Shown here: positions 27,503 through 56,425 of the stretch, in pieces
How positions within the stretch are numbered: the first letter of the stretch is position 1
Layout of the letters: each line of letters begins with the position of its first letter
Source: Neoscytalidium dimidiatum
Taxonomy: Eukaryota; Ascomycota; Dothideomycetes; Botryosphaeriales; Botryosphaeriaceae
Direction: 5' to 3'
Assembly (NCBI GenBank): GCA_037367355.1
Contig: CM074701.1
Location: forward strand, 2,542,001 to 2,606,000
DNA: 64,000 nucleotides
Notes under the pieces: model-generated
Databases searched by the model: none
Told to the model about the DNA's origin: nothing
Seen by the model: only the letters and a program-made list of their open reading frames with translations
Made by a program: the position numbers and the translations under genes

Positions 27503-29277
27503 ATGCGCTTCCTTGAGGCGTCCCTGGCACTCAGTGTCCTCTCGTCTCTCTCTTCTTGTGGAGTCAACGCTTCTCCAGTCTCCCTCGACGTTGATCTTGT
27601 CGAGAGGCAAGCAAACAGCTTCTTTGCCATCCCCGGAGTCACCGGTGGAGTTTCGAACCGCCTGGAGATCCGCGATTTGGCCAACAATGCCGACCAGTTC
27701 AATCTTTTCGTACTCGCTATGCAGCGCTTCCAATCACAGGCTCAAAGTGGAAAGCTGTCGTACTACCAAGTTTCCGGTAAGCCGCGTTAGCCTCGGCGGC
27801 TCGGGAGTTCACACGTTCGGCCACTGACGCTAACGCCATTCGTATATAGGTATTCATGGCAGACCCTACGTCAACTGGGATGGTGTTGGGCCGTATCAGT
27901 CCAGCCCTTGGTGGCCAGGCTACTGCCCCCACAGTTCGAACTTGTTCGGCACCTGGCACAGACCCTACATCGCACTTTACGAGGTGAGCGGTCCCAGCTT
28001 CGATTAGACTTTAGCCATATGCTTAACTTCTACGCTAGCAACTCATGATTCAGTATGCCAATGAAGTCATTGGTGAAATTCCGGATGCTGCGACAAGGAA
28101 TCGCTACCTGAACGCCGTTAGGACCCTGCGCTTCCCTTACTGGGATTGGGCCAAGAGAACGACTTCGATTATGCCGCCTCAAACGACTGCAAACTTTATC
28201 CGTGTAACGTTCCCTCAGAACGGTACCACGGCTGCCATTCCGAATCCGTTGTACAGCTATCGCTTCCAAGTTGTCCCGAACGGAGACTTCGACGCCAACT
28301 ACGCCCGTAGCACTCAAACCACTCGTCTGTCCAATGTCGAGAGCAACCTTGCCAATTCTTACACCAGCCGCCGCAATACCCTGCTGACTCTCTTCAGCAC
28401 CAATCAGCCATACAACAACTTCTCCACCGATGCCAACGGTAACACTGCTCCCAACCTCGAGGGCATCCACAACGGTGTTCACGTTGATGTCGGCGGCTTC
28501 ATGCAGCAGGTCGCTTACTCTGCTTTCGACCCGATCTTCGCCATGCACCACGCGAACGTCGACCGGGTTCTCGCCATCTGGCAGAAGCTGTACCCCAACA
28601 ACTGGGTTACTTCCGCTCCACAGGGTGCCGGCACCAGGACTATGGCGCCGTACAGCATCCAGAATGCCGACTCCCCGCTCACCCCCTTCCACCGCGACAC
28701 ACGCGGCACCTTCTGGACCTCCAACTCCGTCCGCGACACCACCGTCCTCGGCTACAACTACCCCGACCTCCCTGCCGGCATCAGCACCGCGCAGCTCACC
28801 ACCAACCTCAACCGCGCCTACGGCAACACCGCCGGCAGCGCTCAGTCAGCCGCGGCGGGCGGCTCCCCCGGCCCCACCTACGACTACCTGGCGCAGATCA
28901 TCCTGGACAAGACGGCGCTCGGCGGCAACTCGTACGCGGTGCAGTTCTTGCTGGGCGGACAGCCGGTCGCCTCCTTCGCCGCGCTGGCCATCCCGGCCTC
29001 GCCGGGCGCGAGGGCGGGCCCCGTCACCAGCTCCGGCACCGTCATGTTCACGGACGCGCTCAAGGCCAAGGGTGTCAACACGGCCGACGAGGACGCCACC
29101 ATCGACTACCTCAACGACAACCTCAAGTGGCAGGTCGTCCAGGACGGCAACGTCATCCCCAACTACCCCCCTTCCGCCGTCAACGTCACCATCTGCAACA
29201 CCGAGGTCAAGCCCGCCCGGGCCGCGAGCCAGTTCTCGACTTGGACGGCGCCGCCGACCGATATCAATAGCAACTGA
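27503..29277 (+). CDS. Secreted tyrosinase / catechol oxidase
   Basis: Three exons (27503-27776, 27850-27983, 28039-29277) encode 548 residues. The N-terminus is a signal peptide with a likely cut near NA/SP (about residue 24), and a VERQ segment follows. The type-3 copper site is complete. CuA His are at about 94 (GIHGRPY), 119 (PHSSNLF) and 128 (WHRPY). CuB His are at about 280 and 284 (GIHNGVH) and in [13 protein letters not shown] (about 307). PYWDW near 170 and the tyrosinase C-terminal domain (from [17 protein letters not shown]) are also present. It should oxidise phenols to catechols or quinones, probably outside the cell or in the secretory route. UstQ and PhomQ tyrosinases belong to ustiloxin and phomopsin clusters, so proximity to the RiPP-like locus (5.5 kb) is suggestive; an independent melanin or defence enzyme is equally possible. 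The C-terminal half is markedly more GC-rich at third positions. Confidence 0.95.
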
Positions 29278-34727: not shown

Positions 34728-35255
34728 TTAGATCTTCTTGGCCGCCTTCTTGTCCCAGTACTGGACAGCAGCGGTCTCGGCCTCGGCATCTTCCTCACGC
34801 TTATCCCAGTACTGAACAGCAGCAGTCTCCGCATCAGTGGTCTCCTCCCTCTTGTTCCAGTACTGAACAGCAGTAGCCTCAGAATCCTCCTCTCGCTTGT
34901 CCCAGTATTGAACGGCAGCAGCCTCAGCCTCGGTAGCTTCCTCACGCTTGTCCCAGTACTGGACGGCGGCGCTCTCGGGAGCGGTCTCTTCCTCCCTCTT
35001 GTCCCAGAACTGAACAGCGGTAGCTTCGGCTTCGGTAGCCTCCTCTCTCTTATCCCAGTACTGAACAGCAGCAGCCTCGGCCTCACCAGCCTCCTCCCTC
35101 TTGTCCCCGTACTGGACGGCGGCGCTCTCGGGCGCAGTCTCCTCGGCGCGCTTCTCGGGGACGGCGATGATCGACTTGGCGGGGGCAGCGACGGCGCCGG
35201 AGCTGAAGAAGGCGCTGAGGAGCAGCAAGGCTGCGGAGGTGGTGGTGGACTTCAT
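34728..35255 (-). CDS. Repeat precursor of a dikaritin-type RiPP (UstA/PhomA-like)
   Basis: A 175-residue intronless CDS. A signal peptide (hydrophobic LLLLSAFFSSGAVA, cut near A/AP at about 22-24) leads to a first Lys-Arg at 35-36, then eight tandem units of 15-17 residues, such as EEATEAEAAAVQYWDKR. Seven end in Lys-Arg, the eighth in Lys-Lys before a short AAKKI tail. Kex2-type cleavage after KR would free each unit, and the acidic x-Ala spacer suits dipeptidyl trimming. The conserved core is AVQYWD; variants are QYGD (unit 1), QFWD (unit 3) and QYWN (unit 6). Signal peptide plus KR-bounded repeats with a Tyr-containing core is the hallmark of ustiloxin, phomopsin and asperipin precursors, and four UstY-type genes lie within 10 kb. 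A pheromone precursor is the main alternative, made unlikely by that context. A TATA motif lies about 130 bases upstream. Confidence 0.85.
   Translation of the reverse strand: MKSTTTSAALLLLSAFFSSGAVAAPAKSIIAVPEKRAEETAPESAAVQYGDKREEAGEAEAAAVQYWDKREEATEAEATAVQFWDKREEETAPESAAVQYWDKREEATEAEAAAVQYWDKREEDSEATAVQYWNKREETTDAETAAVQYWDKREEDAEAETAAVQYWDKKAAKKI
34746..35147 (-). repeat. Eight tandem coding repeats (7 x 51 bp, 1 x 45 bp)
   Basis: Direct repeats that encode the core-peptide units of the RiPP precursor. Seven copies are 51 bp; the sixth is 45 bp because its spacer is shortened to EEDSEAT. Silent differences are common between copies while the core residues stay nearly fixed, which points to selection on the encoded peptide rather than recent duplication alone. 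Confidence 0.9.
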
Positions 35256-35682
35256 TGTTTCGTTCCGGTGATTTGCTGCACAGTGGTGCGGAGGTTTGGA
35301 GAAAATGAGGCTTGAGGGGAGATGAGAGGGAGGACGAGGCTCGATGGTCGATCTGTTATGTGGCTTTGGAGTTGTGGGGTGTGCTATATACACACCGATA
35401 AGTGTCTTAAACTTCAGCCGTTGGAATCAATAGTTTGAAAGTAACGGTGACTGGACTGACAAGGAACATGACGGCAAGGAGTCATTGAGTTGGTACTGGG
35501 CTGACGGGTGACGGGTTGTCATGTCAAGCGTCAGTATGCACTTGACAGGATGACACCGAGGGTGACAGTTGCCAGATTCGGTTAGCTTGATTCTGAACAA
35601 ACTTGCGGTTTAGTCAAACCTCGACATTCTATCATCCTACAGCTGTTGTTGCAGCAAAAGATTTTGGAGGATATCACTCACA
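35256..35682. promoter_or_regulatory. Bidirectional promoter, precursor / MFS gene
   Basis: 427 bases between divergent start codons. On the precursor side, TATATAG (about 35384-35390, minus strand) lies about 130 bases before its ATG. The middle (about 35445-35575) is dense in TGAC/GTCA half-sites: TGACGGGTGACGG, ATGTCAAGCGTCAG (35521), TTGACAGG (35542) and GGTGACAG. TGAC(G) is the core bZIP recognition half-site, and a bZIP gene lies in the cluster, so autoregulation by that factor is a reasonable inference. Part of this arrangement recurs in the promoter at 44190-44601. Confidence 0.6.
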
Positions 35683-37474
35683 ATGGCGAAAAAGAGCCCA
35701 TCCCTGGCACTTTCCACGTGTGTTGTCGGAGGGTAAGTTACCGCACCAAACTATTTAATGTGAAATGAGAAGAACTATCCAAAGAGGGCAAAAAAAGATG
35801 GAAAAAAAAAACATGGTTAACGCCAAAAATACAGCCTCCAAGTCGTCTGGGCCATCATCATGGCCAACGGCACTGTAAGTCCCCCATCAACCCCACACAA
35901 CCCTCCCCCTCCGCCCTCCCCCACCACAGCGAACCGCACAAGCCAACCAAAGGAAAAAAAAAAAACTCTACTAACGTCCTCATCCTCAGCCTCACCTCCT
36001 CTCCCTCAGCATCCCCGCCCCCCTCACGCCCCTCATCTGGCTCACCGGCCCCATCACCGGCACCCTCCTACAACCCCTCCTCGGCGCCCTCAGCGACGCC
36101 CGTTCCTCTTCCTCTTCCTCTCCATGGCGCGGCGGACGCCGCCGCCGCCGCCGCCGCCGCCGCCCGCTCATCCTCCTCGGCGCCCTCCTGACCAGCACAT
36201 CCCTCCTCCTCCTCGCCTGGACGCGCCCGCTCGCCCTCCTCCTCGCCCGCGCCTTCACCTCATCCTCATCCTCACCCTCCCACCCCCCTCACGCAGCAGC
36301 CGACCGAGCCGCCACCATCACCGCCACCTCCCTCCAGCGCGCCTTCGCCCCCCTCCTCGTCCTCGCCCTCAACGCCAGCATCCAGCCCGTCCAGGTCGGC
36401 ATGCGCGTGGTGCGGCGCGTGGACGGGGGTGGGGAGCTTGGTCGGGTACGCGGCGGGGAGCGTGGTGCGTGAGGGAGTGAAGGAAATAGGAGGAGGAGGG
36501 ATGACGCGGTTCCAGGTGCTGGCGGTGGTGGCGGCGGCGGCGATGCTCGTGAGCGCGGGGGTGACGTGCGGGGCGGCGGAGGAGAATGAGGAGGAGCCAT
36601 GCTGTGGTGGTGGTGATGGTGGGGAAAGGCGGCTGTCGCTGGTCGGGGGGTTGGGGCACACGTGGCGGGCGATGTCGCGCAGATTGCGGGCGCTGTGTTG
36701 GGTGCAGTTTTGGGCGTGGATGGGGTGGTTTCCGTTTTTGTATTATGCGCCTACGTGAGTTTCCTTTTCTTTTCTTTTTCTCCCCATGATCGAGGCGTTG
36801 GCGGTTCGGCGAAGAAAGGAATAAGCTGACCGGCCTCTGCAGATACGTTGATAAGCTGCGTAGGTGCTCTCCGTCCAGCGTTGTGCAGTGTGATCAATGC
36901 TAACGTCCGTACAGATAGACGGGAATCGCGGATTGCTGACGACGGCCTCTCCATGGGCTCCTATGCTGGATTCACGATCACGGTTGTCAGCCTCTTTACG
37001 ACCGTCTTCCTTGTCGCGCATAGCTCGACGGGGCAAGCTGATGACGAAACCGAGTGGGAAGAAACAGATGAAGGAGTCGAGAGGAGTCCCCAGCTCGCGC
37101 ACAATCAAATTGCTCGCCTCTGGACGCTCGCACATGCGTTCTTCTTCGCACTCCTCTGGAGCACCATTCTGGTACGATCTTGGAGGTCGACAGCAATGTT
37201 GATAGCGTATACAGGTATTCCGTGGGCAATGACGCAATGGGTCCCATATGCCATCATTGGTGAGGAGGCAGCGTTGCAACAAGAAGGCAAGCTCGGAAGC
37301 ATTATCGGCCTCCACAACGTTGCCATATCGGCGCCGCAGATTCTATCAGCTGGGGTCAGTGCGGTCGTGCTTTGGGCTGCGCAGAGTTTGGGAAGCGAAG
37401 ACGGTATCGGTTGGCTTCTGAGGATTGGCGCGTGCGCTGCGGTGCCCGCCATTTATGCGATAAGACAGTTGTAG
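35683..37474 (+). pseudogene. Sucrose/GPH-type MFS transporter with internal frame break
   Basis: Exons 35683-35732, 35835-35874, 35990-36754 (approximately), 36843-36859 and 36915-37474 spell a sugar-transporter-like MFS protein: SIQPVQVGMR, then VGSLVGYAAGS, then VQFWAWMGWFPFLYYAPTYV and a normal C-terminus (IGWLLRIGACAAVPAIYAIRQL). Within the third exon, near 36396-36405, the frame that carries helices 1-4 and VQVGMR ends up one base out of register with the frame carrying AWCGAWTGVGSL. Relatives have about 15-20 more residues at this point, including a conserved D-x-x-P-x-x-Q-x-x-A-N segment. The simplest reading is a small out-of-frame deletion, so the gene is either broken or mis-assembled in GC-rich sequence. 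A (CCG)n expansion nearby makes a ten-Arg run in the loop after helix 2. If intact in other strains it would be the cluster exporter. Confidence 0.6.
36136..36164. repeat. (GCC)n expansion encoding poly-Arg
   Basis: About nine CGC/GCC units inside the third exon of the transporter gene, translated as an uninterrupted Arg run in a cytosolic loop where relatives have only RRRP. Confidence 0.9.
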
Positions 37475-37560
37475 AGAAAACGTCATGTGAACCCAGGGCT
37501 TTGCGGCCTTGTTGCATGTTTAGCTAATGGAAGATAGCTGCTTTCGTGAATGCTCGTTAT

Positions 37561-38764
37561 CTACGGAAAGTCTTCTAATTCGACCTCGTCTCCTTTCTTC
37601 CAGATGTGATGTGTAATGGGTGCCGCATTTTGTTGTGCCCAATCCAGAACCTGCTCCGGATCTTTGCATCGGTGCTGTGCAGGCTATTAGCATCAAAGAC
37701 CTCTGGTTGCTTGCGTCTTCCTGGACTTTGGAACATGACGAAACATGGATATGCCCTGCAGGGGATCGAGCGATGTGTTGGGCTACCTAAGGCATAGTAA
37801 AATGACTTACCACCGTGCTAAAATCTGGCGTGGGCGTGCCGGTCTTTTTAACCCAATGAAACATGACCAGTCCCGTGTCGCTGTGACACATGATGAACTG
37901 GCGAAGTATGTCAATGCTATGATCTGGCGGATTGTAAGCACGCAAGTATTTCTGAAGTGCAGAAATTGAAGGGATTCACCTGTATGCTCGCGAAGATGGT
38001 ATCTGTTAGACTCGGCCCAGAAATGATCAATCTTTTGGTAGTGATCTATATATGTCCATTTCCGCAGCATGTTCTGAGATCAGCGAAATTAGCCTCTGAA
38101 AGACTTGTAGTTCTACTTGTATGTGCTTACGAGACAGTGGAGTTGATGGAACAGCTCGAGACCCGCCATATATCCACCTCCAGTTTTCCTCGTCTAGCTC
38201 GACCAGAGTGTCGGTGGAGAATGTGTTATTGGATAGCTGCACGTCATCACGTCATCAAGGGAAACGCCAAGTACGGTCGCCGTGCCTGGCATCCATTCTA
38301 TGAAGACTCAGCCTCGGCTTCGACAGGAAAGGGCGTTCCTACAGAGGGGTTTACCGTTATCGGTGAACCGATTCCACGCGTTATCGAGCTGCTCGCTTGG
38401 GGGCACGCGGTACTGGTTGGCCCCATACTGTGACCCACTGAACCTGGTCCAGCGGGCTTTTATCTGAGCTAGTTCACTAGCTGATGTTGTTCGCAGCGTT
38501 AGAGGAGTAGTTCCAAGAGAAATGCAGTCGCTTACACCAAAATAGTTCAGAAGGTAATTTATCGGAGGGCTGCGGAACCGCTGTGGCTGGCCAGGTGAGT
38601 AAGGGAATGGCGATTCCGAGGCCGATGCCGACTATAAGGGCGGTAAACGCGACTAAACCCAGTTTCCGCCGTGATGGATTATGTGCAATGCCAACAGAGA
38701 TACTGCCTCCTTTCTCGCTCTCTTCGGTAGACAGAGGCGCGTAGCTGCCTCCGGCCGATTTCAT
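37561..38764 (-). CDS. UstYa-type DUF3328 oxidase, second motif altered
   Basis: Seven exons: 38764-38536, 38468-38355, 38297-38251, 38193-38131, 38073-37980, 37923-37811, 37674-37561. The five introns after the first are 56-137 nt, mostly 57, and all junctions keep frame, giving 257 residues. A short cytosolic N-terminus, one transmembrane helix (about 35-57) and a lumenal domain follow the UstYa plan. YMAGLELFHQLHCL carries the first HxxHC. The second, expected in HTDHSIDILRQFIMCHSDT, has Ser where Cys is normal (HTDHS). The ending HRCKDPEQVLDWAQQNA is typical. UstY proteins cyclise dikaritin core peptides, installing the Tyr ether bridge in ustiloxin. The Cys-to-Ser change may alter or abolish oxidase activity, leaving a partner or scaffold role. 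It runs tail-to-tail with the transporter gene (86 bases apart) and head-to-head with the next UstY gene. Confidence 0.85.
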
Positions 38765-39018
38765 GTTGATGAGAGACAGCGTTGAAGCCAGTACACTCTG
38801 CTAGTAGGAGCGCACCGGGGTTCGAATAAATGGAGTTTGAATGAGGAGGAAGGTGACAAGTGGGTCATGGCTGACTTGGCTGCAGCGCGTCAGCCAGCGG
38901 CAGCGGTGCGCATCTGACATTCGTAGCACGCCTCATAACCAAGCTCGGTGAGCGGCATATTTGATCCCTAGATCGACGCCAGATCACTCCCACTGCATAC
39001 CTCTGCCCGACCACAGGG
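38765..39018. promoter_or_regulatory. Bidirectional promoter between two UstY genes
   Basis: 254 bases between the divergent starts. Contains several TGAC/GTCA half-sites (GGTGACAAG, GGCTGACTTGG, GCGTCAGCC, TCTGACATT), consistent with bZIP control, but no obvious TATA box. The two flanking genes belong to different UstY subtypes. Confidence 0.5.
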
Positions 39019-39758
39019 ATGTCTCGGTAGGTAGGCATCAATGGCTGGATTGAAGCGAATGGCTGGCTGACCTGTGCAGGGCGACGTGGAAATACGAGCA
39101 GGTGCGGACGAGCACGGAAGAAGACGGCGGGGTGGATCGAGAGAGACAGCGGCAAAATTGGGCGCGAGTCGCTGGGGTGTCTGCAGCGATTCTGGGGATA
39201 GTGATGTTGATGGGACTATTGGGGGCGATGATAACGCGAGGTGCGGGCCGGGCGGGCAGCGACGCTGGGCAGGCACAATCAGTGGGCCAGAGTCAGAGCC
39301 AGCCGAAGGACTGCGGCGCCACACCAGACGACGCCAAGGCCCGCGGCTGCCTCTTCGACGTGCTGACGTACAGCTGGCAGCCACCCGCCTGCATCGACGA
39401 GACAACATCCTCCGAGTCCCGCGAATGGCTCAACGGCCCTGATCTGCTATACGGCCCTTGGCCCTTTTTCTCTGCCTCGTCGCCCGATGACGCCCACCGG
39501 GTATCCGACGAGGCGGCCCTGGGCCTCCGCGTCGGCCAGAAGACCTGGGCCACCCAGGAGGAGCATCTTGCCCACTGCGTCTTCATGATGCGACGCCTGC
39601 AGCGTGTCGCCGATGGCCTGGTGCCCCACCTCCAGATCGAGTCGCGCGACCATGTCCGCCACTGCACCCATGAGATACTGGGTGCCTTGCATGGTGTGCG
39701 CCCTGCCACCGCCGAAGGCCTTCGCACAGTGCTTACCGTTGGCATCACCTCGTGCTGA
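39019..39758 (+). CDS. Short-type UstY/DUF3328 oxidase
   Basis: The body of the protein lies in 39080-39758 without an in-frame ATG at its head. A tiny first exon, 39019-39026 (ATG TCT CG), joined over a 53-nt GTAGGT...GCAG intron, supplies a start and keeps frame; 228 residues result. The start is therefore inferred. One transmembrane helix (about 30-53) precedes a lumenal domain that opens CGATPDDAKARGCLFDVLTY and has both histidine motifs, HLAHC (about 165) and HVRHC (about 194). It shares this layout with the gene at 44602 and differs from the two longer UstYa-type proteins. Such short forms accompany classical UstYa proteins in fungal RiPP clusters and are presumed oxidases; the actual reaction is unknown. 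Confidence 0.8.
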
Positions 39759-39976
39759 CAGGATTCACTAGCTGCATTCTAGCTAGACTGTCTACCTATC
39801 TCTCTCTGCCTACCATTCCTCTTTGATGCGGCTCCGGGATTGTCTTGTGTGATGATACAAAAGCTTATATACCTGCCCAGCCATCTGGCCTCTCAGGTAA
39901 ACGTCGAAGAGGACCGGATGGAGAGAGATCTATTGCTCGTATCCCTTAATAAAAAGTCCATTCTCACCCCTAAGTC

Positions 39977-41215
39977 ATGGAGGACGAACTGGACTGGACT
40001 TCGGTCCAAGATGCTCGAGACCGCAAGAAAATACAGAACCGCATGGCCCAGCGTCGTCGTCGTACGCCTCGCCGTTGTTTGCTGATGCCCGTCTTGGCTT
40101 ACACCAACCGTTCTACGGGCCAAAAGCTTCGCATTGAGCGCCTTTCGGGCGCACACTCCATTACAAGTCCTCTCTCCCCGTCAGCCAATGACCCTGCGTT
40201 ACCGTGAGACACTCGCCCGACATTGATCTCACTAGCTGACATCGTTGCAGAAGCTCGCCGTCGCCGCCAACTCCCGCCGAACCAAGCTTGTCGCCAGCTG
40301 TTCAACAAATTAACGTATTCGACGACTTTCTGTTAAACCTCAGCCCCGACTCGGTCCACACTCCAGCCGGCCGTGAATCTTCTGGACAGAACGTCTTTCC
40401 TTGGCCCGAATCTGCCAGAGACATGACCTCGGACAGTTCCCAATTCATGGTCTCTCCGCCATCTTCATCAATTCGGATAGAGCCGGAGTCTCTGGGTATT
40501 TGTTCAAGACTGTCTACTCATGACGGCCTTCAGAGGGCCTTGGCGGACGCCCAGGTCACCGCATGTGAGGAGACGCAGGCAAAAAGGAAAAAGCCGGTGT
40601 CGCTCGAAGAACGATTCGAATCAGTTCTGACTGCTCTTGGCCAAGCTGGGTTTGTAGATTTCGACGACATGATTACTCAGTACTACACAAGTACCTTCGC
40701 GGAACATTCAGCTGCGTTCGAAGCACAGCGCCTTAGCCGGACTAGACGCCTGCGGGGCCTCCTGACCTCTCTTTCCACCTCTGCTAGTGCCTGGCCCGAG
40801 AGAGAGAAGAGGTCCTGGGCGGATGCTGTAGTCGAAGCCGCCGAGAGCGCCTATGTGGACGAAGCTCGAGGGGCTTTGGCCGATCAGTTCGCCGCTACAA
40901 GCGAGCAGCAGCACCAGGGTGCCGATCGCTCGGCTTCTGCAAAACGAGGCCAACCCTGGATGAAAGTTTTGGAGCGATGGCTAGTCGACGCGGAGGATCC
41001 CGCTGCCGACAGAATGCGCCACAAGTCGTCGGTGAGGGAACAGGTACGTACCTTGTCATGCAGCATTTTACCGGTCTATGCGTCTGAGAATGTGATATCC
41101 TTAGTTGCCCGAGCTGTGGTCACTGCTGTCTCAAATTGTTTCCTTATCGGGCTTGCCCCAACCACAGGCCGTAGACGCGGTTTACACTACTATCTTGATT
41201 CTGCTCGGGATTTGA
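39977..41215 (+). CDS. bZIP transcription factor, probable cluster regulator
   Basis: Three exons, 39977-40203, 40251-41043 and 41168-41215, give 355 residues ending AVDAVYTTILILLGI. The N-terminus WTSVQDARDRKKIQNRMAQRRR is a fungal bZIP basic region (N-x-x-A-Q-x-x-R). After it there is no clear leucine heptad series: the chain turns into RTPRRCLLMP and a Ser/Pro-rich stretch, so the zipper is missing, atypical, or hidden by an intron I could not place in frame. The C-terminal half (EERFESVLTALGQAGFVDFD, then ITQYYTSTFAEHSAAFEAQR) matches the helical domain found in many fungal bZIP factors. Reading through the second intron instead extends the frame to 41259 with a less natural ending. Position inside the cluster and the TGAC-rich promoters suggest it controls these genes. 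Confidence 0.75.
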
Positions 41216-41652
41216 CATGTCCAAGCGATAAGCACGACCATTTCGGAGTCCTGGTGTAGGATTCTGACCACCTTCGAATTTCCAGGCGCTTTCAGGACAC
41301 GCATAGCCATTATGCTCTCCATTTATCATTACAACACCGTTGCACACTTTCCATAGACGTTGCGCGATTCGGCGTTGTGAGATGTCGGGCTCTGTAGCAT
41401 ATGCCAGCCGTTGGTGCAAGCTGAAGTTCTATCAAATGGTTATAAAGGTATCCCTTCACTGTTGGGGTTTACCGTCAGAATCCAGACTCGGAATTTCCGG
41501 TTTTGCATGAATGATCTTCCAGCTGACGTCCGCCCTGTTTGTTGCAAGCGAAGGAGCGCGTCAGCCCTGACATGGGTACAATGAAGCGGCTGGATCTGGA
41601 GCAGCACAAAACCCCGCACAATCGCCGTGAGATTCGTGCGCATCCAGGCAGA
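41216..41652. other. Intergenic; promoter of the fasciclin gene
   Basis: 437 bases between two rightward genes. It includes TATAAAGG near 41441 and two TGAC/GTCA sites (ACCGTCAGAATCC, AGCTGACGTCCG). No gene seen. Confidence 0.5.
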
Positions 41653-42955
41653 ATGCATTTTCTCGCGTATCTCGCTATAGCAATTTGTTTAAAAAGCACC
41701 GGCGTGACAGGGAATGCCATCCACCAACTGCCTATTTCGCCCGAGAAAGGAATTCGAAGGATTGCCGACGATAGCGAGCAAGCTATCAACGTTGCCCAAC
41801 ACGACCATCTTCTCCACGCTGGTCCAGCGGCATCCAGACGTGCTGCAAGCGCTGGAAAACCGCAGCGCCAGCTACACGCTCTTCGCCCCCACCGACGCGG
41901 CATTCCACGGCGCCACCCTCGCCGCCTCCACCGCCGCCGCGGCACGACCACACAGCAACGACGACGACGATGACGACGACGACGACGACAACGTCGAAGG
42001 GCAGATCCTGCGCTACCACATCGTGCCCCACGCGGTGCCCGCCCTGCTCATCCCCTGCATCCCAACCGTCCCGACCCTCCTCACGCCTGCCTCGCTGGGC
42101 AACCACCCGCAACGCCTCGCCCTCTCGCTGACCTTCGACCCGTTCGCCTCCGCCCTCGTCAACTCGCACGCCCGAATCACGACGCACGACATCCGCGCCA
42201 CCAACGGCGTGATCCACGTCACCGACGCGCTGCTGGCGCCGCCCCTCCCGGCGCCCGTTCCGCGCGTCGTCCTCGAGCGCCTGGACCCCGCCCGCTACGC
42301 CAAGTATCGTGCCGCGGTCAAGCTCATCGGCGGCGCCGATCGCGTCTTGGAAGAGGAAGAGGAAGAAGCAGCAGCAGAAGCAACGGCGGCCCGCCCCTGC
42401 CGCCGCCGCCGCCGCCGCTGCGGTGGCGCATTCGCTTCCACCTGGCTCGCGCCCACGGACGCCGCGTTCGACGCGCTGGGCCCCGTCGCCAACGCGTTCC
42501 TGTTCTCGCCCCGCGGCCGGTGCCACCTCCGCGCGCTGCTCCGCTTTCACGTCCTGCCCGGCGTGGCGCTGTACTCGAACGCGCTGTACGGCGGCAGCGG
42601 GCGCGGGGCGGGAGCGGTCGGCGGCGTTGATGGGGAGGTGGAGGAGGACGACGACTACGACGAGCTGCTGGGGGCGGAGGGCGTGCGCGATTGCCGTATC
42701 GGGACGCGTCGGTTCGTGATGGACACGCTGCTATTGGAGGGCGGCGCGGGGGGCCGCCGCCGCGTTGTGGATTTCGCGCGGGTGCCTGGGGCCATTTCTA
42801 TGGTGTTTGATGGGGAGGCCCGCGTCGGGGCTGAGAGAGACTTGCTGGCTGAGGACGGCGTCGTGCATGGTGTTGATCGCATCGTGCTTCCTCGGGATTA
42901 CGGGGAGCTCTGCTCAGATGGCGTTGATTTTCACGATGGCATGGTGCGGCCTTGA
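41653..42955 (+). CDS. Secreted two-domain fasciclin (FAS1) protein
   Basis: A signal-peptide exon (41653-41703, MHFLAYLAIAICLKSTG) is joined by a 46-nt GTGACA...AAAG intron to 41750-42955, for 418 residues. Without that splice the signal sequence and the FAS1 domains lie in different frames. FAS1 domain 1 runs from IFSTLVQRHPDVLQALE, with YTLFAPTDAAF, to NGVIHVTDALLAPP. Domain 2 begins near VLERLDPARY, repeats the WLAPTDAAF motif and ends DGVVHGVDRIVLP. Three homopolymer insertions interrupt surface loops: an Asp run from a GAC microsatellite, an EEEEEE run and a CRRRRRRC run. FAS1 domains usually mediate cell-surface adhesion. Lying between UstY genes in a RiPP-like locus is unusual and could mean a carrier, chaperone or tailoring role, which is pure inference. 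Confidence 0.8.
41958..41990. repeat. (GAC)n coding microsatellite
   Basis: About ten Asp codons, nearly all GAC with one GAT, inside FAS1 domain 1 of the secreted fasciclin protein. Confidence 0.9.
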
Positions 42956-43024
42956 ATGCAGAAATTACGTATTTATTGCACACATGAAGGTTTCTAGTAT
43001 TATCTCTTTGCGGCTGTTCCACTT

Positions 43025-44189
43025 TCAGAAAGGGTTCTCCAAAAGCTCGCTCGCCCCGCGTGGGACAGTCAGCGGCTGCTCGATTGCAACGGCGTTGCTT
43101 AACGCCCACCGAAGAATCGCATCCGGATTGCGACACCGGTGCTCGGTGTTGTAATTCGGCCACGGAGCAGCTACACCCTTGACCCAGTGGAAAAAGACCA
43201 ATCCGGTGCCACTGTTGCACATAAGCACCTGTCTGATGGTCTCGATGCAGTGATCTGGATGCCAAGGGTCAGCAGTCGTCCCAATCGGGAACTTGACGCT
43301 GCAGCAATTGCTTACCGTAGTGGCCCTGATTACTGGGCTGGAACGGACCGTAGCGCTCCGGGTGCACGGCTTTGCGGAGCATGTTCTGCAGCACGGTCAG
43401 TCTTGCTTTCCTAACGCACGTTCCCTACCATCATGGCTTACGGATGCCTTTACTTACCAGGCAATGCGTGACGTGAAACACGTCAAGCGTTGCGACGTAC
43501 CGCTGCTCGTGGCCGTCGACCACCTTTACCACTGTCTCTGCTAGCTTCGCATCCCAGCCCTGTGTTGCTTGCCGGAAATCGGCTTCTCCAACTGTCATCA
43601 CGCCGGATCGCCCATCGAGCATGGCTGTCCACCAATGTGAGCGGAGATGTTCAGTTGAAATTTCCCGGGGAAGGGGGACGTACGATGCATGGTGAACTGC
43701 TCCCATTGCTGATCAAGGTTGTCGTCCAGCGCGCCCTGGAACTGTGATGGGAATTTAGACGGGAACAGGAAGGATTCATTGAAACGCGTTGACTGGGGAG
43801 AGATAAGGTCTAGGATGGGTGCTGTGAGGAGACGGTTAACCAGCGTTCTCTTCTTCCTCGCTTGTTTGCGATAGATTTTATGATGCGGATCATCCGAGGC
43901 GGGAACACCTACACCATGAGATCTCGTCCGATGCACTCCGGACGCGGGACCGGATCCATGTCGGATGATAGGACACAATGAGCAAATGCGCCGCAAGTAG
44001 CACGGCCGTGCAGATGCAGAGGGCGCCATGCGCGACCAAAGGCCTATTGCGCCGCAGCCATGGCGAGGGGTGCGGCTGCCGCGACATCGACTCGTCGTCA
44101 TCTTCGGAGAACTTGCCATTGTTGCGTAGAGGCTCGAATGCTGCGTCTCTAGATGCTTGGTTTCTTTTGGCGATGTACGTCCACCACAT
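43025..44189 (-). CDS. UstYa-type DUF3328 oxidase
   Basis: Five exons (44189-43913, 43821-43684, 43624-43458, 43385-43316, 43254-43025) encode 293 residues. A cytosolic N-terminus of about 55 residues, one transmembrane helix (about 60-80, HGALCICTAVLLAAHLLIV) and a lumenal UstY domain follow. Both catalytic motifs are intact: FHVTHCLN spans an exon junction, and HYDHCIETIRQVLMCNSGTG spans the next. The ending HRCRNPDAILRWALSNA parallels the gene at 37561-38764, and both genes share a phase-1 junction right after a Trp codon, which shows common descent and supports both models. This is the best candidate for the main cyclase of the precursor. The extended C-terminus (EQPLTVPRGASELLENPF) is specific to this copy. 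It converges on the fasciclin gene (69 bases) and diverges from the next UstY gene. Confidence 0.9.
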
Positions 44190-44601
44190 CTTAGCGATAT
44201 AGTGTTTCTGTGGGGAAGTGGTGAGGACGGATGGTGGAGAGGACTGGCCAAGCTCTGCCAATGCGGAATGCCATGGCGTTGTTGCCTCAATGAGGCATCG
44301 GAGGATGGTTCTGTCAGGCTGCCTGCAGTGAACACTGTTTTGACGTTGCGGAGTAAGGGTAGGATGTCAGGCAGTCAGAACGGTGACAGGCGAAGCTGAC
44401 GGTGCAGCGCGGCTGACGTGCACGCCAAAACATCATACATGACGGCAAACACAACATCACAAAGATCTTGATTTCCCTAATGGGTATTGACATATTTTCT
44501 CTGTCCTTAGAGAGCCGCGTCGTCGTAGGTATGTGAAATGCTACTCAAAATATTTACCGCAAAAGGACATATCCTTGCTAACGCAGCCCAATCAAGCAAA
44601 A
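44190..44601. promoter_or_regulatory. Bidirectional promoter between two UstY genes, shared element
   Basis: 412 bases between divergent starts. It contains ATGTCAGGCAGTCAG (44364) followed 20 bases on by TGACAGG (44384), closely matching the pair ATGTCAAGCGTCAG and TGACAGG in the precursor promoter. GCTGACGG and GCTGACGTGCAC follow, the latter containing a full TGACGTGC bZIP-like site. Confidence 0.6.
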
Positions 44602-45330
44602 ATGGAGCACACCAGAGGAGAAGCCCCTTCGCAACGCGCCTCTCACGACTCCTCCCTCTCAAGCATCGACGAAAGCACGGTCGGCCTCCTCAGCAACACC
44701 GAACAAGAAAAAGACCCCGCAACCACCTGCACGACCACCATCCACCCCCTCAAAAAAGGCAACCGCACCCCGTTCCTCGCCACCATCTTCCTCGCCCTCC
44801 TCGTCCCGCTCGGCCTCCTCCTCTACAACACGCTCCCCAAACCCGCCGCCCAGCCGGCCGCCAGCGCCACCGCCGGCGCCGAATTCGGCGCCTGCGGCGC
44901 CACCATCGCCGAGGCCCGCGCCCTCGGCTGCGTCTTCGACATCCTCTCCTTCGCCTGGGTGCGCCCGGAATGCCTGTACGCCGACCTGCTCGCCGACTAC
45001 CGCAACCGCTCCAGCATCGCGTACTACCGCAGCCCGGCCTTCGCCCCGGCCGACCGCATCCCGGACGAGGAGGTGTACCGCGGCGACTGGCTGCACACGT
45101 ACGCGGACAAGGAGCAGCATCCCGTGCACTGCATGTACATCCTGGCGAAGCTGAACCTCGCGTTGGCGGAGCATCGCCCGATCGACAGCAGGGCGCTGGA
45201 TCTGGTGCATACGAGGCACTGCGGCATGGTGCTGTTGGATGGCTGGTTGCATGAGATGGAGGGGTGTTGGGAGGGCGGGTGCGGGCATACGAGGACGAAT
45301 GCGTTGTTTACGAGCTGTGGGTCTGCGTAG
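44602..45330 (+). CDS. Short-type UstY/DUF3328 oxidase
   Basis: Single exon, 242 residues, starting at the ATG of MEHTRGEAPS; an upstream in-frame GTG is not a credible start. A Ser/Thr-rich cytosolic tail, one transmembrane helix (about 57-77, FLATIFLALLVPLGLLL) and a lumenal domain follow. It opens with CGATIAEARALGCVFDILSF, nearly the same block as the gene at 39019-39758, and carries HPVHC (about 170) and HTRHC (about 200), both complete. Together these two form a pair of diverged duplicates distinct from the UstYa-type pair. Third codon positions are strongly C/G-biased, more so than in the UstYa-type genes. The function presumed from the family is oxidation or cyclisation of the core peptide on the lumenal side of the membrane. 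Confidence 0.88.
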   Translation: MEHTRGEAPSQRASHDSSLSSIDESTVGLLSNTEQEKDPATTCTTTIHPLKKGNRTPFLATIFLALLVPLGLLLYNTLPKPAAQPAASATAGAEFGACGATIAEARALGCVFDILSFAWVRPECLYADLLADYRNRSSIAYYRSPAFAPADRIPDEEVYRGDWLHTYADKEQHPVHCMYILAKLNLALAEHRPIDSRALDLVHTRHCGMVLLDGWLHEMEGCWEGGCGHTRTNALFTSCGSA

Positions 45331-46000: not shown

Positions 46001-47569
46001 TCAATAAACCCAAGGCAGGATTCTCCACCGTACCATCTTTTTGTACTTTTCCCAATCCTCACCGTACTTCTTCGCACACATAGCATCATCCCTCCGCTCC
46101 CGGTGTATCAGCAAAGTGGCAAAATACACCACATAAAAGTACGTGAAGAGCATCCCCCAGCCCTTTGCCTCTCCCTGCACGACTTCTCTTCCATCAAGCA
46201 TTCTATATACATGCTCCGCAGCCGCCGCCCCACCCGCCGGCAGTACCGTGTACCCAGCCAACCCCGTCGGCAAGCTGAACGGCAGAGCCTGCAGCCAATC
46301 GCCAAAGTAATTGATGTGCCGCGAGATGCCCCACCAGCCCGCCGTGAGCAGCCGCGTGCCGCGCTTCGTCCGTATGTACGACAGCTGCCTCACGCTCGGG
46401 TCCTCCGGCCGCGTCCGGAACAAGTTCTTCTGGTCGTTCGCGGCGCGGAAGATGTACAGACCGAGCACGAAGACGGCCGCGACGGCGAGCACGCCAGCCG
46501 GGCCGAGCCGCACCGGGTGCGTCGCGAGGTATCGGCACTGCGTCGAGTAGAGGAAGGGGACCCACACGAGGTCCCCGAAGCAGAGCATGAAGCCGAACCC
46601 GTCGGTCGTCACGTCCATCATCGTGAGCAGGCCGGCTTCGTTCCACTGCCCCGAGAGCACGTACCATGTCTGCACGCCGGCCGTGAAGAGGAGGCTGTCG
46701 GATAGGTGCCCGTAGTTGCGGTACTGCTGCACGGCGAAGGCCAGGTCGAGCAGGATCCAGCCGGTCAGGCCCGGTCGCATCTCGCACCAGGTTTTGAGGT
46801 CGATGGTGCCGAGGAGCGGGAGTGTGATGCGCGGGTTGAGTTCGCGCCCGATGTAGAAGTCGTAGATGATGCTTCCGGTGGCGCCGCCCACGGCTAGTTC
46901 GCGGAGCTGGGAGTTGGGGTAGTTCGTGTTCACGGTGAAGCTACGGAGATAGACGAAGATGGAGAGGGCGTAGGCGATGAGTATGTTGGCGGTGAGGATT
47001 TGCAGATAGTTGTCCGTGATGTAGGTCCAGACGAAGAAGTTGGCGCCTTGGAGGTATGTTCCGATGGCGCAGATGGCTAATTGCGCAATTGAGGATGAGA
47101 AAGCTGGATCGGATGTCAGGCACGAATGGTGATGGGATACTATTTTTGAGAGGTTGCATGCGTACAGTTGAAACGGTACTTTAGCGGGCGACCATGATGG
47201 ACAAGTCTGGTACCGTAGATCTCTAGGGCCGGGAGGGATTTTTCGAGTATTATGCTCAAGAGATAGTAGCCCAGGACTGCACCAGTAGCCTCTAAGCTGA
47301 ATAGATCAGAAATGCCGCTTTCAGGCCATCCGATTTCTGACTTTAAACGATGCCAATCGAAGGTTTGAAAGTCTAGCAGAGAGGGAACAGGACAGCCGCT
47401 TATATCGTTGCAGGTAAAAGCGAAGATATATAGGAGGATTGGAAGACCGAAAGTGATAGCAACGGCTCCGAGACTAAGAAATTAATAAGCGATGCTCAGG
47501 AAGCGATACCGAAAAAAGGGGAACATACGGTCCACCAAACTCGTACTCAGTGTGTGCGGAAGTAGCCAT
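46001..47569 (-). CDS. erg24: C-14 sterol reductase (ERG24 family)
   Basis: Three exons, 47569-47529, 47473-47166 and 47103-46001, give 483 residues, the usual family length. MATSAHTEYEFGGP opens the protein as in fungal Erg24. The characteristic blocks are present: GRPLKYRFN, YDFYIGRELNPRI, LKTWCEMRPGL, MDVTTDGFGFMLCFGDLVWV, then LLTAGWWGISRHINYFGDW (the NADPH-binding ERG4/ERG24 signature) and the ending VRWRILPWVY. About nine hydrophobic segments fit an ER membrane enzyme that reduces the C14=C15 double bond of ergosterol intermediates. All expected motifs are intact, so it should be active. Whether it is the only copy in the genome cannot be seen here; a second copy beside a biosynthetic cluster would hint at self-resistance or a dedicated role. 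Confidence 0.93.
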
Positions 47570-51682: not shown

Positions 51683-53778
51683 TTACACTGCGGTCTCCGT
51701 GACCGAAGAGAGTTTGGCTTCGGAAATAACAGTGGGGGCCTGGACGGAACGCCCAGCTGCATCGTGTGTAGCGTCCCACTCAGCGACCTCAGCATTAGGT
51801 ATCTTCCGGAGCCTGTGGCTCTGAGCGCCGTCGTCAAGGTAAATGAGTTCCTGTCGTAATTGGTAGCCCTTCCACTTGGGAAGTAGGAAAGCCCAGAACC
51901 AATAGTATATTGCGCATATGAGGAGAATTGCGATACCAGCAACAGCGTATGTAGCGTACCAGAAGCTGACATCGCCGGCATACTGGCCGCCAGCGGGTGG
52001 ATACCAGGGCATAACCAGGAGGTAAAACTGGATAAGGATGTTGAAAATGATGACAACATGCCACGCCTTGAACTCGGGCTCGGGAAGGTTGGCCTTGCGT
52101 CTGCGCCAGCGAACGACATAGACACCGACAGCCATGGCCAAGTTGAAGACTGCGTTGGGAACAATTGCCAGATCGTTGACGAAAGTGAACGCATCACCAG
52201 CAGGGACGGCCAGAATCATCAGGATGGTCAAGAACCAGATAACGAAATAAGGTCCGAGAGGGGTTCCAAACGGCTTAGTAGAAACCCAGAAGGTAGTGCA
52301 GGGAAGAACTCCTTGTCGTCCGCACTCTCGAATTCGACGAGACAGACCGATGATGACAGCTATCATGTTACCGAAAGAGGCCAGAGCAATGAGGAAGTTG
52401 AGGCCACGGACAGCGCCACTGTTGCCAAAGACCTTAGAAAAGAATAGGCTGGCAGTGGTGAGTTCCGAGTTCTCAAGCTCGTCCTTGGGGACTGTAGTGG
52501 GATCCGTAATTAGACTCAGATTTTTCAGAAAATTATCATTTACTTACCAGCAGCGAAGAAGGCTACGTTAGCAAACATGTACAGAACGTATACAGTGGTG
52601 AGAGCAGCAGTAGCGTAGATCTTCAGTGATCGTACAGGATTCTACCAGACTTCAATATCAGTCCAACTCTTCTGAAAACAGCCTAACGAGGCGCCATACC
52701 TTTACTTCATTAGCAACATTGAAGGCGTTGTTGTAACCACCGTAAGAGAAGATTATACGATAAAGTGCGGTAGTCATGCCATACGCTGAAGCATTACTAC
52801 TACCGGACCATGCATCTCGGAAGTTCGCCTTGGGATCCTTGACCCTGGTGTTACCACCCAAAACAACAAAGCCGGTGAGGATGACGAAGACCAGGGTGCA
52901 AATTTTGACGAGACCGACGGCGTTAGAGAATCGGTATGCATACTTAGTGTTGAAAACAAGAGCTACGTTCCGTCAATTGCCGAAAGCGAATAAAGATCTG
53001 GTGATGGCTATCTTACTCAAAGTAGCAAGGGTGTAGCATGCGAGAGCAGTGCCTTTGATCTGCCACTCAGTACCTTTATGCCCAGATATGGCAATCAGAT
53101 AGTTGGCCATGACTGTTACCCCGCGTGAGCTTTTGTCACAATACATCCACGGAATCCGCTTACCGGTAGCATTGGCACTTCCGAATGAGAGAATAACGCT
53201 CTGGACGGCAAATGTTGTCGGGAAGAGCCACATGGGACGAGGGTAGGCTTGTTCAAGGAAGACGACTTCGGAACCCGATCGACTAGGGAAGTAGGCTGTG
53301 AATTCAAGGTAGACAGACCCTGACGCCATACATAACTTTGAAGTCAACTGTTAGTCACTGGTCGTTTGCTGTGTCTCCGCATTTGGTAATAGACGACGTA
53401 CGAGGTAACCAAGTGTCCAGTAGACAAAACTGACACCAACAGAACCGGTTCCAGATAGGATGGAGGATGCTTTGCACAGTCAGTGTAACCTTTTCGATGG
53501 GTGCGTAAAACTCAGATCTTACGTGTAGAGTATATCCCAGCTCCAATCATCATCGTGATGTTCAGCAAGGTAATCGTGACGGGGCCGACCGAATAACCCA
53601 GCGGCGAATTATTTTCAATAGGCGCGCCTGAAGCATCTTGATAGGTGGCGGGCGCATCGTTACCTCCCTTCTCGCTGATGTACTTGGTTCCATTTGCGGA
53701 GATCTCCTCGCTCTGGCTGCCCACCATCGAGCCTTGCGCGTCCGCGCGATGGCTACTATATGGCTGCCGCCAAGACAT
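51683..53778 (-). CDS. Amino-acid permease (APC/LAT, methionine-permease-like)
   Basis: Seven exons: 53778-53523, 53469-53402, 53335-53164, 53112-53017, 52962-52700, 52641-52548, 52491-51683; 585 residues in one frame. A hydrophilic N-terminus of about 65 residues precedes GPVTITLLNITMMIGAGIYS, the first helix with the unwound G-A-G-I-Y-S substrate site. Later family blocks are EVVFLEQAYPRP, VVLGGNTRVKDPKANFRDAW, FSYGGYNNAFNVANEVK and PFGTPLGPYFVIW. About twelve membrane helices are visible. It resembles the fungal high-affinity methionine permease (Mup1) branch. A TATATATA box at about 53898-53907 lies some 125 bases upstream of the ATG. It should import neutral or sulphur amino acids across the plasma membrane. 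Link to either neighbouring cluster is unproven. Confidence 0.92.
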
Positions 53779-56425
53779 TGAGAGGACAAGGACCAGGATA
53801 CAACAAGATGGGTCCGAAAGAGGTGTGTTTCACGATGAGAAAGGACAATGTACTGTGCATGTGCTCGAGAAAGAAATGAAACACCCGTTCCCAGTGACTA
53901 TATATACGGTGTGCCCTTTTCTCCAAACAGATGTGGATTAACAACATTAGGCGACTTTCTGCCTAGTTCGGTTGGCTTTGCCGTTCGCCTAATTTCGGCA
54001 TCGGAGTGGCCAATGGTACAACGTCCAAAAGTGGGAGTTTGGGTGGAGGCTGAACAGGGTGAGGCGATCACAACAGACGTCACGGAAATGGCGAAAACGC
54101 CCCGTCAAAGCACGATCGCGCTGAAGAAACAGCGTTTTGCATTGCACAGTTCATAGTGATGTTCGGTCAGTTCGTTTGCATGAGGCTTCAGTGAAAAGTT
54201 GGAGATCTTATGGTGTCAACATTGAGCAATCCAAGAGTTGTAGGGTCTCATTTTCATCCGCTACCTATGCAAAGTGTGTATACCATCTGCCGCATAGCAA
54301 AACACGAGTGGCATTCTCCGAAACATCTCGACGCGTGTTCAATAATTATGCAATAATCGGTCCATTTAAAACCGACCTGCGATCAGTCCGGCAAACACGG
54401 TTTTTAATCCGCGGCCTCCGATGGGTTTCATGACAGACACTAAGAATTATCCCGCCATGTTGGATTTGCGGGCGCTGGGCCTCGCCTTGGTTTCCCCGAG
54501 ACACTACCTGAGGATGTCACTGTTGCGCTTGTCGGAGGGAGAGTACCTTCCGTACCATAGTCCGAAAATTTGCACAGCTGCCGACTCCACAAGAAAAGTT
54601 TTAGTGAATCTCTCACTTGCACGCCTTGTTTGAATGGGACAGTAAGACAAATCCTTGTTGAGGAGACCATGAAAATAAAGTTTCTCTCGAGTCTTTCCAT
54701 CTGACTTAAAGAAGAGAAATGTTTCGGCGTATAGTGGCAAGTACAGCACAAGATATTGGGACCAAAGTCGAGGATATGCGGCGTCGCGGAACGTTCCACT
54801 GCCTTTAATGTTACAATTTCTAAGCATGTGAAAAGACCCACATAGCCATACGATAGCCATGGAAACAGCAGGCGGTATCTCAGTCTCAACAGTTACCGCC
54901 GATTGAAAAACAGGTGCCGAGATCATATACCAGCACCTAATAATACTCACCACTTACCCACGATGAATTATACAGCTGCCTTTGATCAAGGGTACGCTTC
55001 CGACAATCAAATCCTGTCCATTAAAAGAACCTTTTTCACCTCCGCAATCATGAGTCAGTCCTGCGTTCGTCATAGACCCTTGCGTCGACCTCTGGAGCAA
55101 CGTCAGAGTCCTGCTCCGCGAAACTCTCTTCATAACCAACAATGATCCTCCCTCCTTGACCACCGGCTAGCCCAATACTATCTACTCCTCCATTATCGGC
55201 ATCCCGCTCGGCGACATCGAGCTCTAATCCAGCGCAAGCACACACGTCGTTTTCAACACGTCCTACAAGACCGTGACCTGCTAAATACATCCCCACCCGT
55301 TCGCGCTTCGCCGCGCGCCTCAGCTACGACGCCCGACTCGGCCTAGCGGTCAACGAGTTTCTCCTGCGCGACCAACCTCATCGCAACAGGCAACCGATTC
55401 GGCACACGGCGTCGCTTGCTCTACGAAATCCGCACAAGAAACTGCACGAAGAAACATTCAGCTGCACCCTGCACGCGGAATGCACGTACGAAACAAAATC
55501 TCCAGACGTGGGGATTAACTGCACCGAACATATTCTCAGCGCCCCGCGCGTGCGCAACGACACCAGCCTGTCGCATGCCGAGTGTCCGTCGCGCGCGCCG
55601 TCCTTCTCGGCGAGCATTCCTGGCTCTTGCGAAATGCTCCACGATGGCGTTCAACTCGTCCAATTCACTCAGCAACCTACGGTACTGCTTGCAGGACCTG
55701 GACCACCCGTGGAGTTTGGATAATAGACCTACACCGGTTGGGGTGGATGCCAAGGCTTGAGGATGGCGCATTGCGTTTGACGCAGCTGATGGGCGCAGTT
55801 TGTGTGACCTCAATTATGATTTACTTAGTGTCCGATTGGGCGCGTCTCTAATCTGGGCGAGTGTGCGGATTTGATCGAGAAGTGGACCGCGGAGATCGCG
55901 AGGCTTGAGGGGACGCTGCAAGCGAGTTCCCGCTCCCTGAGGCGCGATCAGAGGTGGCTGGTTGTCGTGCTTGTGGCGGCGTTCGTGCCTGCAATGAGTG
56001 GGGCGGGGATCGTGCTCAGTCTCGTGACGATGGCGCCGGACTTTCATAAGAATGCCTCGACCAAGATTCAGCTAAGCTCGTACGCGGGAGAGCTGCCGGC
56101 ATGTGCGACAACGCCGGAATATGGGGAGATGGTGGGTTTATTAAAGAATCTGAGGATGATGATGGGGCATGTGCAACTGAATGGGTAGGTGGGAAAGATC
56201 TTGGTCGTGGCGATGGGTTCTGAATCCGGGAGAGTAGAAAGGATAAGAGCTGAAGGACTGCGCGAATGAAGGTGTCTCAGAGGTTGTCTTGAAATTAGTC
56301 TATGTGCCAAACGTCTTATAGAACGTAAATGTCCCCTCTGCTGATGAAGCCGTGCAATCATACTGCTGAAGATCATAGTGCGCCTGACGGGTGAGCTGGC
56401 CAGCATAGGTTTTGTCTACAAACAA
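53779..56425. other. Intergenic region with possible gene remnant
   Basis: The first part is the promoter of the permease. From about 55200 to 56190 the plus strand has protein-like fragments in different frames: a Cys/Asn-rich piece (SCTLHAECTYETKSPDVG-like, NCTEHILSA) and a piece with a membrane helix (WLVVVLVAAFVPAMSGAGIV, about 55870-56188). They do not join without stops, and I cannot assign a family; they may be the remains of a secreted or membrane protein gene. Confidence 0.3.

What the first reader, a model, noticed from the sequence alone, without database searches (positions are those of the whole stretch)
34728..45330. Candidate undescribed dikaritin-type RiPP gene cluster
Seen: a secreted precursor with eight KR-bounded repeats, four DUF3328/UstY genes, a bZIP regulator, an MFS transporter gene and a secreted FAS1 protein packed into 10.6 kb, in three divergent pairs. 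Known: ustiloxin, phomopsin and asperipin clusters pair a KR-repeat precursor with UstYa/UstYb oxidases. Inferred: the product is a cyclic peptide derived from Q-Y-W-D-type cores, which matches none of the dikaritin cores I know (YAIG, YVIPID, FYYTGY, GLKLAF).
Basis: partly seen in the sequence, partly recalled or inferred. Interest (0 to 1): 0.95.

Follow-up and report, generated by a model that had tools for sequence, protein, structure and literature searches.

The report
Fungal cyclic-peptide gene cluster, new core
A fungus carries a compact set of genes that very probably makes a small oxidised, perhaps cyclic, peptide from a repeated precursor; this kind of cluster is well known in fungi, but the repeated sequence and part of the enzyme set look new.

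Summary
A 175-aa precursor with a signal-like start (34728-35255, minus) carries eight Kex2-bounded repeats ending in VQYWD or a variant. Two spliced neighbours are full UstYa/DUF3328 proteins (6.5e-46, 9.5e-42). Two more proteins (39.1, 44.6 kb) share the layout, one membrane helix and HxxHC...HxxHC, but do not match PF11807; they are each other's only clear relatives in the genome.

Corrections: a tyrosinase at 27503-29277 was missed, the enzyme type needed for ustiloxin and phomopsin. The transporter-like gene appears frame-broken. The 'bZIP' call rests on a motif only. One UstYa has Ser for Cys in its second copper motif.

The kind is ordinary: a survey lists 1758 precursor-DUF3328 pairs, and 4 of 8 UstYa loci in this genome lie near a Kex2-repeat precursor. 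VQYWD was in no main text of the library searched; one unnamed database protein has the same core three times.

Most likely a new dikaritin-type RiPP cluster making a Tyr/Trp-oxidised, probably cyclised peptide. Product, crosslink, expression and species are unknown.

The parts
34728..35255 (-). Precursor gene, 175 aa, signal-like N-terminus, eight Kex2-bounded repeats with core VQYWD or variants
35683..37474 (+). Transporter-like gene (MFS), spliced, with an apparent frame break between 36394 and 36420
   Evidence: MFS_1 E 3.1e-4 on one piece, below cut-off; break; start by eye
37561..38764 (-). UstY-1, canonical UstYa protein, seven exons in the model; motifs HQLHC and HTDHS
   Evidence: PF11807 6.5e-46; splice model; motifs
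39019..39758 (+). UstY-2, look-alike with one hydrophobic helix, HLAHC...HVRHC; start unresolved (main exon from about 39080)
   Evidence: No PF11807 match; motifs; alignment with UstY-4
39977..41259 (+). Putative regulator with a bZIP-like basic region; not confirmed by Pfam; gene model uncertain
41653..42955 (+). FAS1 (fasciclin) protein, two domains, possible signal exon at 41653
   Evidence: PF02469 4.3e-28; first exon options
43025..44189 (-). UstY-3, canonical UstYa protein; motifs HVTHC and HYDHC; one acceptor site ambiguous
   Evidence: PF11807 9.5e-42; splice model
44602..45330 (+). UstY-4, look-alike, single exon, 242 aa, HPVHC...HTRHC
   Evidence: No PF11807 match; motifs; genome search
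27503..29277 (+). Tyrosinase with signal-like N-terminus; likely but unproven member of the cluster
   Evidence: PF00264 2.1e-48, Tyrosinase_C 2e-12; exons; position control

Best explanation
It is a dikaritin-type RiPP cluster. Shown: a precursor with a signal-like N-terminus and eight Kex2-bounded repeats; two proteins of the UstYa copper-oxidase family; two look-alikes with the same motif pair; a FAS1 protein and a nearby tyrosinase. Inferred: the precursor enters the secretory pathway, Kex2 cuts after each KR, and exopeptidases strip the acidic/Ala spacer and the basic ends, leaving a core of 5-7 residues, (A)(A)VQYWD. Membrane-anchored UstY proteins with their catalytic part in the lumen, helped by the tyrosinase, oxidise the core at Tyr and perhaps Trp, most likely making a crosslink from the Tyr side chain. 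The peptide is then secreted. FAS1 may steer the coupling.
For: Eight repeats with the core kept and the spacers variable. PF11807 6.5e-46 and 9.5e-42. HxxHC pairs and one strongly hydrophobic stretch in all four UstY-type proteins, except HTDHS in UstY-1. DUF3328 proteins characterised so far are binuclear copper enzymes with a lumenal domain (PMC12435403, passages). Tyrosinase 2.1e-48; gene disruption showed the tyrosinase and both UstY genes of ustiloxin to be essential for the first intermediate (PMC6514808 passages). By position alone 0.0077 tyrosinase loci would be expected within 10 kb of this cluster (11 loci). In the survey tyrosinase genes peak two genes away from precursors that have DUF3328 neighbours (PMC7329392 section 7). 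Unnamed protein P0001 carries AVQYWD/N three times behind KR with a signal-like start. 4 of 8 UstYa loci of this genome, this one included, have a Kex2-repeat precursor within the stretches scanned.
Against: No expression, product or knockout data. DUF3328 proteins are also found in polyketide and nonribosomal clusters (PMC12048977 section 22). Apparent transporter frame break. UstY-1 lacks one copper-site Cys; alanine substitutions of the conserved His and Cys abolished CctR activity. No peptidase or methyltransferase was recognised among the reading frames scanned with Pfam, which were not all frames of the window. P0001 has E 0.14 by score. FAS1 and a bZIP-like regulator are not standard dikaritin parts. 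Tyrosinases as a class do not accumulate around precursors in general (341 counts, 4.3% of 7878).
Confidence: 0.8

Rival explanations
1. Decaying or inactive cluster: these are the remains of a dikaritin pathway, and the broken transporter and the altered copper motif of UstY-1 mean that no mature product is made.
For: Apparent transporter frame break; HTDHS in UstY-1; one repeat with Gly for Trp and one with Phe for Tyr.
Against: Precursor, both UstYa genes and UstY-4 have open frames with consistent splice sites where spliced; core codons vary while residues hold. The transporter region is GC-rich, so the break could be a sequence error. Asperipin needs few genes (precursor, one UstY homologue, transporter, reductase).
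Confidence: 0.12
2. A linear secreted signalling peptide such as a mating pheromone; the UstY genes act on something else.
For: Layout like alpha-factor; an X-Ala dipeptide stands before V in all eight repeats, which would suit Ste13-type trimming.
Against: In the survey no yeast mating factor and only three putative fungal pheromones had DUF3328 neighbours (PMC7329392 section 8). The core has no Cys pair. A WCxxxGQxC pattern search gave 3 hits (control pattern 2), two with a stop in that frame by eye; the genome's own pheromone was not found, so this test is inconclusive.
Confidence: 0.05
3. Narrower cluster (not exclusive of the best explanation): the tyrosinase at 27.5 kb and the FAS1 gene are bystanders, and the pathway is precursor plus UstY genes only.
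For: At least one unrelated-looking coiled-coil gene lies between tyrosinase and precursor. Tyrosinase genes were near only a few percent of precursors in the survey (341 counts for 7878).
Against: 0.0077 chance tyrosinase loci expected here, 0.046 over all eight UstYa loci; two known dikaritin pathways need a tyrosinase. The FAS1 promoter holds GCTGACG twice (P 0.0027 against other loci), though the motif was picked after looking at the other promoters.
Confidence: 0.35

Closest known systems
Ustiloxin and phomopsin clusters (dikaritins)
   Same: Signal-peptide precursor with KR-bounded repeats, DUF3328 proteins, tyrosinase (PMC6514808 passages; PMC9233826 passages)
   Different: Different core; no methyltransferase, S41 peptidase or zinc-finger regulator recognised among the frames scanned here; two UstY-like proteins outside PF11807 and a FAS1 protein
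Asperipin-2a cluster
   Same: Small cluster with precursor, UstY homologue and transporter; a core with more than one aromatic residue
   Different: No isoflavone-reductase-like gene recognised in the frames scanned; four UstY-type proteins instead of one; transporter apparently broken
Kex2-processed repeat proteins with DUF3328 neighbours (Umemura 2020, PMC7329392)
   Same: Fits the survey's repeat criterion (three or more repeats of eight or more residues between Kex2 sites) and has DUF3328 genes close by; 1758 such pairs listed
CctR, copper-dependent DUF3328 hydroxylase (PMC12435403)
   Same: HxxHC(x)nHxxHC motif and one membrane helix
   Different: UstY-1 has HTDHS; UstY-2 and UstY-4 keep the motif but show no PF11807 match

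Membership tests
Dikaritin-type RiPP cluster | Precursor with signal peptide | tested here: inconclusive
   Hydrophobic N-terminus, best 19-residue hydropathy 1.75 at residues 8-26, followed by AVA-AP; no signal-peptide predictor was available
Dikaritin-type RiPP cluster | Multiple near-identical cores bounded by Kex2 sites | tested here: met
   Eight repeats
Dikaritin-type RiPP cluster | DUF3328/UstYa genes beside the precursor (named as the defining feature in a 2021 review, as cited in PMC12048977 section 22) | tested here: met
   Two PF11807 proteins within 9 kb; the same section notes that such genes also occur outside RiPP clusters
Dikaritin-type RiPP cluster | Tyrosinase in the cluster (ustiloxin/phomopsin branch) | tested here: inconclusive
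   Tyrosinase present 5.5 kb from the precursor; membership of the pathway not shown (one search gives the position control)
Dikaritin-type RiPP cluster | Product cyclised through a side-chain crosslink | not testable with these tools
   Needs mass spectrometry or NMR and gene deletion
UstYa/DUF3328 family (UstY-1, UstY-3) | PF11807 match over the curated cut-off | tested here: met
   157.4 and 143.8 bits, cut-off 25
UstYa/DUF3328 family (UstY-2, UstY-4) | PF11807 match over the curated cut-off | tested here: not met
   No PF11807 match at E<=1; profile comparison with UstY-1/3 aligns only the motif region, probability 3.6, E 0.012
UstYa/DUF3328 family (UstY-2, UstY-4) | HxxHC(x)nHxxHC after one membrane helix | tested here: met
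UstYa/DUF3328 family (UstY-1) | Both HxxHC motifs intact | tested here: not met
   Second motif HTDHS; only one intron was found that joins these exons
Alpha-factor-type mating pheromone | Pheromone core of a known type, no DUF3328 genes nearby | tested here: not met
   DUF3328 genes adjacent; core unlike WCxxxGQxC; the genome's own pheromone was not found

The most novel reading that the evidence does not exclude
UstY-2 and UstY-4 are a second, unrecognised branch of HxxHC copper oxidases, outside the DUF3328 model, acting together with a canonical UstYa pair. UstY-1, with Ser in its copper motif, is then a structural partner in a mixed UstY complex rather than an oxidase of its own, and FAS1 directs the coupling. 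The peptide would carry an oxidative link involving Trp as well as Tyr, unlike the links described for ustiloxin, phomopsin and asperipin.
Probability: 0.2. Interest if true: 0.65.

Novelty: new member of a known kind. Interest (0 to 1): 0.42.

Why it matters
DUF3328 enzymes were shown to be binuclear copper oxidases only recently (PMC12435403), while the 2020 survey counted 1758 precursor-DUF3328 pairs. This cluster offers a short core with one Tyr and one Trp, four UstY-type proteins of two sequence classes, one with a natural change in the copper motif, and a tyrosinase nearby. It would be a compact test of how UstY proteins share the work and whether Trp can be crosslinked.

Tried and rejected
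Pheromone search: pattern WCxxxGQxC, three hits in the genome (two forward, one reverse; control pattern two); two hold a stop in that frame by eye; nothing concluded.

Precursor relatives: the single-sequence search scored only the 7998 candidates sharing most words; 2 had E<=10: P0001 (E 0.14, kept) and P0002, a Paraphaeosphaeria minitans repeat protein with another core (E 3.1, dropped). The profile search (7996 candidates scored) returned only P0001, which was part of the query. Scans of viral and prokaryote contigs: 45 and 34 pattern matches, none confirmed. The third and last protein search, with UstY-4, had 1078 candidates and none at E<=0.001. So neither the species nor orthologous clusters could be named. 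UstY-1, UstY-2, UstY-3 and the tyrosinase were not searched in that database.

Structure: UstY-4 modelled with a two-row alignment, mean pLDDT 38.3; discarded, no fold search made. No solved structure matches the UstYa pair (best E 0.55, DpHF18).

Profile link between the two UstY classes: not shown.

Kex2-repeat scan: 33 records, 264,768 bases, with overlaps. Counts in other frames of the same arrays (L016, L014, L009, window) and a weak three-piece match in a 1295-residue frame of L020 were dropped. Seven other UstYa loci were covered by 20 kb each in two halves; an array split by an intron or by the boundary of the halves would be missed.

Promoter motif: five 7-mers shared by the three divergent promoters against a mean of 1.2 for 500 random triples, of which 3.8% reach five. 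GCTGACG then counts 6 in 1703 bp of five promoters against 0.33 expected from other loci, 0 of them in the regulator's own promoter. Chosen after looking, so suggestive only.

Full report
C7 is 3,085,783 bases long, so the cluster lies about half a megabase from the nearer contig end. No relatives of this genome are held, and the protein searches named no close species, so the organism stays unknown. Fungal origin is inferred from the spliced genes and the UstYa family.

Precursor. The coding sequence runs from 35255 to 34728 on the minus strand, one exon of 175 aa with a hydrophobic N-terminus followed by AVA-AP and the first KR. Eight repeats follow, seven of 17 residues and one of 15. Each ends in VQYWD or a variant (VQYGD, VQFWD and VQYWN once each), then KR, or KK in the last. 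The residues before the core vary but end in X-Ala in all eight, and V follows 10 residues, or 8 in the short repeat. Synonymous codons vary inside the core and at the Arg. There is no second copy in the genome.

A second precursor with the same core. The protein search returned P0001, 145 aa, unnamed, from a 14,326-base ENA contig. It has a signal-like start and three cores, AAVQYWD twice and AAVQYWN once, with KR before each. Its E-value is 0.14, so score alone does not carry it; the shared block, its repetition behind KR and the same D/N variation do. Outside the core the two proteins differ, which suggests selection on the core. An even number of residues between KR and V is not kept in its third repeat, so strict dipeptide trimming remains only an idea.

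UstY proteins. Splice models for the two minus-strand genes rest on GT-AG introns between conserved pieces. UstY-1 and UstY-3 match PF11807 over nearly its whole length with 157 and 144 bits. UstY-3 has HVTHC and HYDHC. UstY-1 has HQLHC and HTDHS; only one intron was found to join those exons, so the Ser does not come from a choice among introns, though a sequence error cannot be excluded. In CctR the two HxxHC motifs form a binuclear copper centre, and alanine substitutions of the conserved His and Cys abolished activity (PMC12435403, abstract and passages). The plus-strand proteins UstY-2 and UstY-4 have one strongly hydrophobic stretch, a shared CGAT...GC.FD...W..P.C region and both motifs, but no PF11807 match at E<=1 and no convincing profile link to UstY-1/3. 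A whole-genome search with UstY-4 found itself, UstY-2 (32%, 2e-11) and one weak match at 0.0016. So 'four UstY genes' is right by motif and topology, but only two of four are UstYa by the family model.

Other genes. The FAS1 protein has two fasciclin stretches and a possible signal exon. In a polyketide pathway a fasciclin protein changed the regiochemistry of a laccase's oxidative coupling (PMC13207265, passages); a steering role here is only an analogy. The putative regulator has a bZIP-like basic region and nothing else to confirm it. The transporter-like gene has one piece with a weak MFS_1 match; its frame changes between 36394 and 36420 with no GT-AG intron of 30 nt or more to span the change. 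That is a lesion or a sequence error in a GC-rich stretch, if my reading of the pieces as one gene is right.

A missed gene: tyrosinase. At 27503-29277 (+) lies a tyrosinase with a signal-like N-terminus, PF00264 2.1e-48 for its first 334 residues and Tyrosinase_C 2e-12; solved mushroom-type polyphenol oxidases match at 3e-48. By eye, and with recalled motif knowledge, the six copper histidines are present. The genome has 11 tyrosinase loci by my grouping of 21 matches, a lower bound. By position alone 0.0077 would be expected within 10 kb of this cluster, or 0.046 pairs over all eight UstYa loci. At least one coiled-coil gene without a match over a family cut-off lies between it and the precursor. 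Ustiloxin needs its tyrosinase together with both UstY proteins (PMC6514808 passages). In the 2020 survey tyrosinase genes did not accumulate around precursors in general but peaked two genes away when DUF3328 genes were present (PMC7329392 section 7). I treat it as a likely but unproven member.

How common this kind is. The survey (PMC7329392; abstract; section 6 part 1 of 2 and sections 7, 8 and 13) found 7878 Kex2-repeat proteins in 1345 of 1461 strains, 1758 with DUF3328 neighbours at a mean of 3.09 genes. 2560 of the 7878 had no homologue in the set, so a new core is common. DUF3328 genes also occur in polyketide and nonribosomal clusters (PMC12048977 section 22). In this genome PF11807 matches fall into eight loci by my grouping of 20 matches. 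A scan found Kex2-repeat precursors near four of the eight: this one, C3:2247458 (ten repeats with YVWASAG), C4:2263567 (28 by the script, mostly YVWASKG) and C3:1441042 (seven, ending DAILPYKE); none met the criterion in the 20 kb taken around the other four.

Co-regulation. GCTGACG occurs six times in 1703 bp of five promoters, 0.33 expected from 140 kb of other loci. The FAS1 promoter, not used to choose the motif, holds two (P 0.0027); the putative regulator's own promoter holds none. Suggestive, not proof.

Literature. The search for VQYWD, QYWD, VQYWN and QFWDKR matched 64 papers, 30 listed, all with QYWD alone, apparently as chance letter strings. Papers with VQYWD would have headed the list. 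Searches listed no paper that names this cluster in title or abstract. Supplementary tables, subscription journals and MIBiG were not searched, so 'not in print' goes no further than these searches. The review passages on dikaritins are in PMC9233826.

Verdict. A well-formed dikaritin-type cluster with a new core: a new member of a known kind. The unusual parts are the UstY pair outside the family model, the HTDHS motif and the FAS1 protein. They make it more interesting than average but do not by themselves show new chemistry.

Noticed in passing
G000:C4:2263567-2265549 (L016:5567-7549) and G000:C3:2247458-2248462 (L014:7458-8462): Two further Kex2-repeat precursors, 28 and 10 repeats with YVWASKG and YVWASAG cores, each 3-4 kb from UstYa-family matches; they look like related clusters.
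   Followed up: partly
G000:C3:1441042-1441710 (L021:7042-7710, minus strand): Seven-repeat Kex2 precursor (VIAAPESLPDSDAILPYKE) about 2 kb from a UstYa gene.
   Followed up: no
window 37886-38007: UstY-1 carries HTDHS where the family has HxxHC: a natural change in the copper motif of an otherwise full-length UstYa protein.
   Followed up: partly
window 36362-36458: Frame change in the transporter-like gene with no GT-AG intron to span it.
   Followed up: partly
window promoters 35256-35682, 38765-39018, 41260-41652, 44190-44600: Shared GCTGACG motif, six copies against 0.33 expected in five promoters; perhaps the binding site of the cluster's regulator.
   Followed up: partly
window 51686-61638: Amino-acid permease, fumarylacetoacetate hydrolase, glyoxalase and P450 pieces downstream; possibly a separate metabolic cluster.
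   Followed up: no
window 46004-47305: ERG4/ERG24-family sterol reductase beside the cluster (4.6e-131), probably outside it.
   Followed up: no
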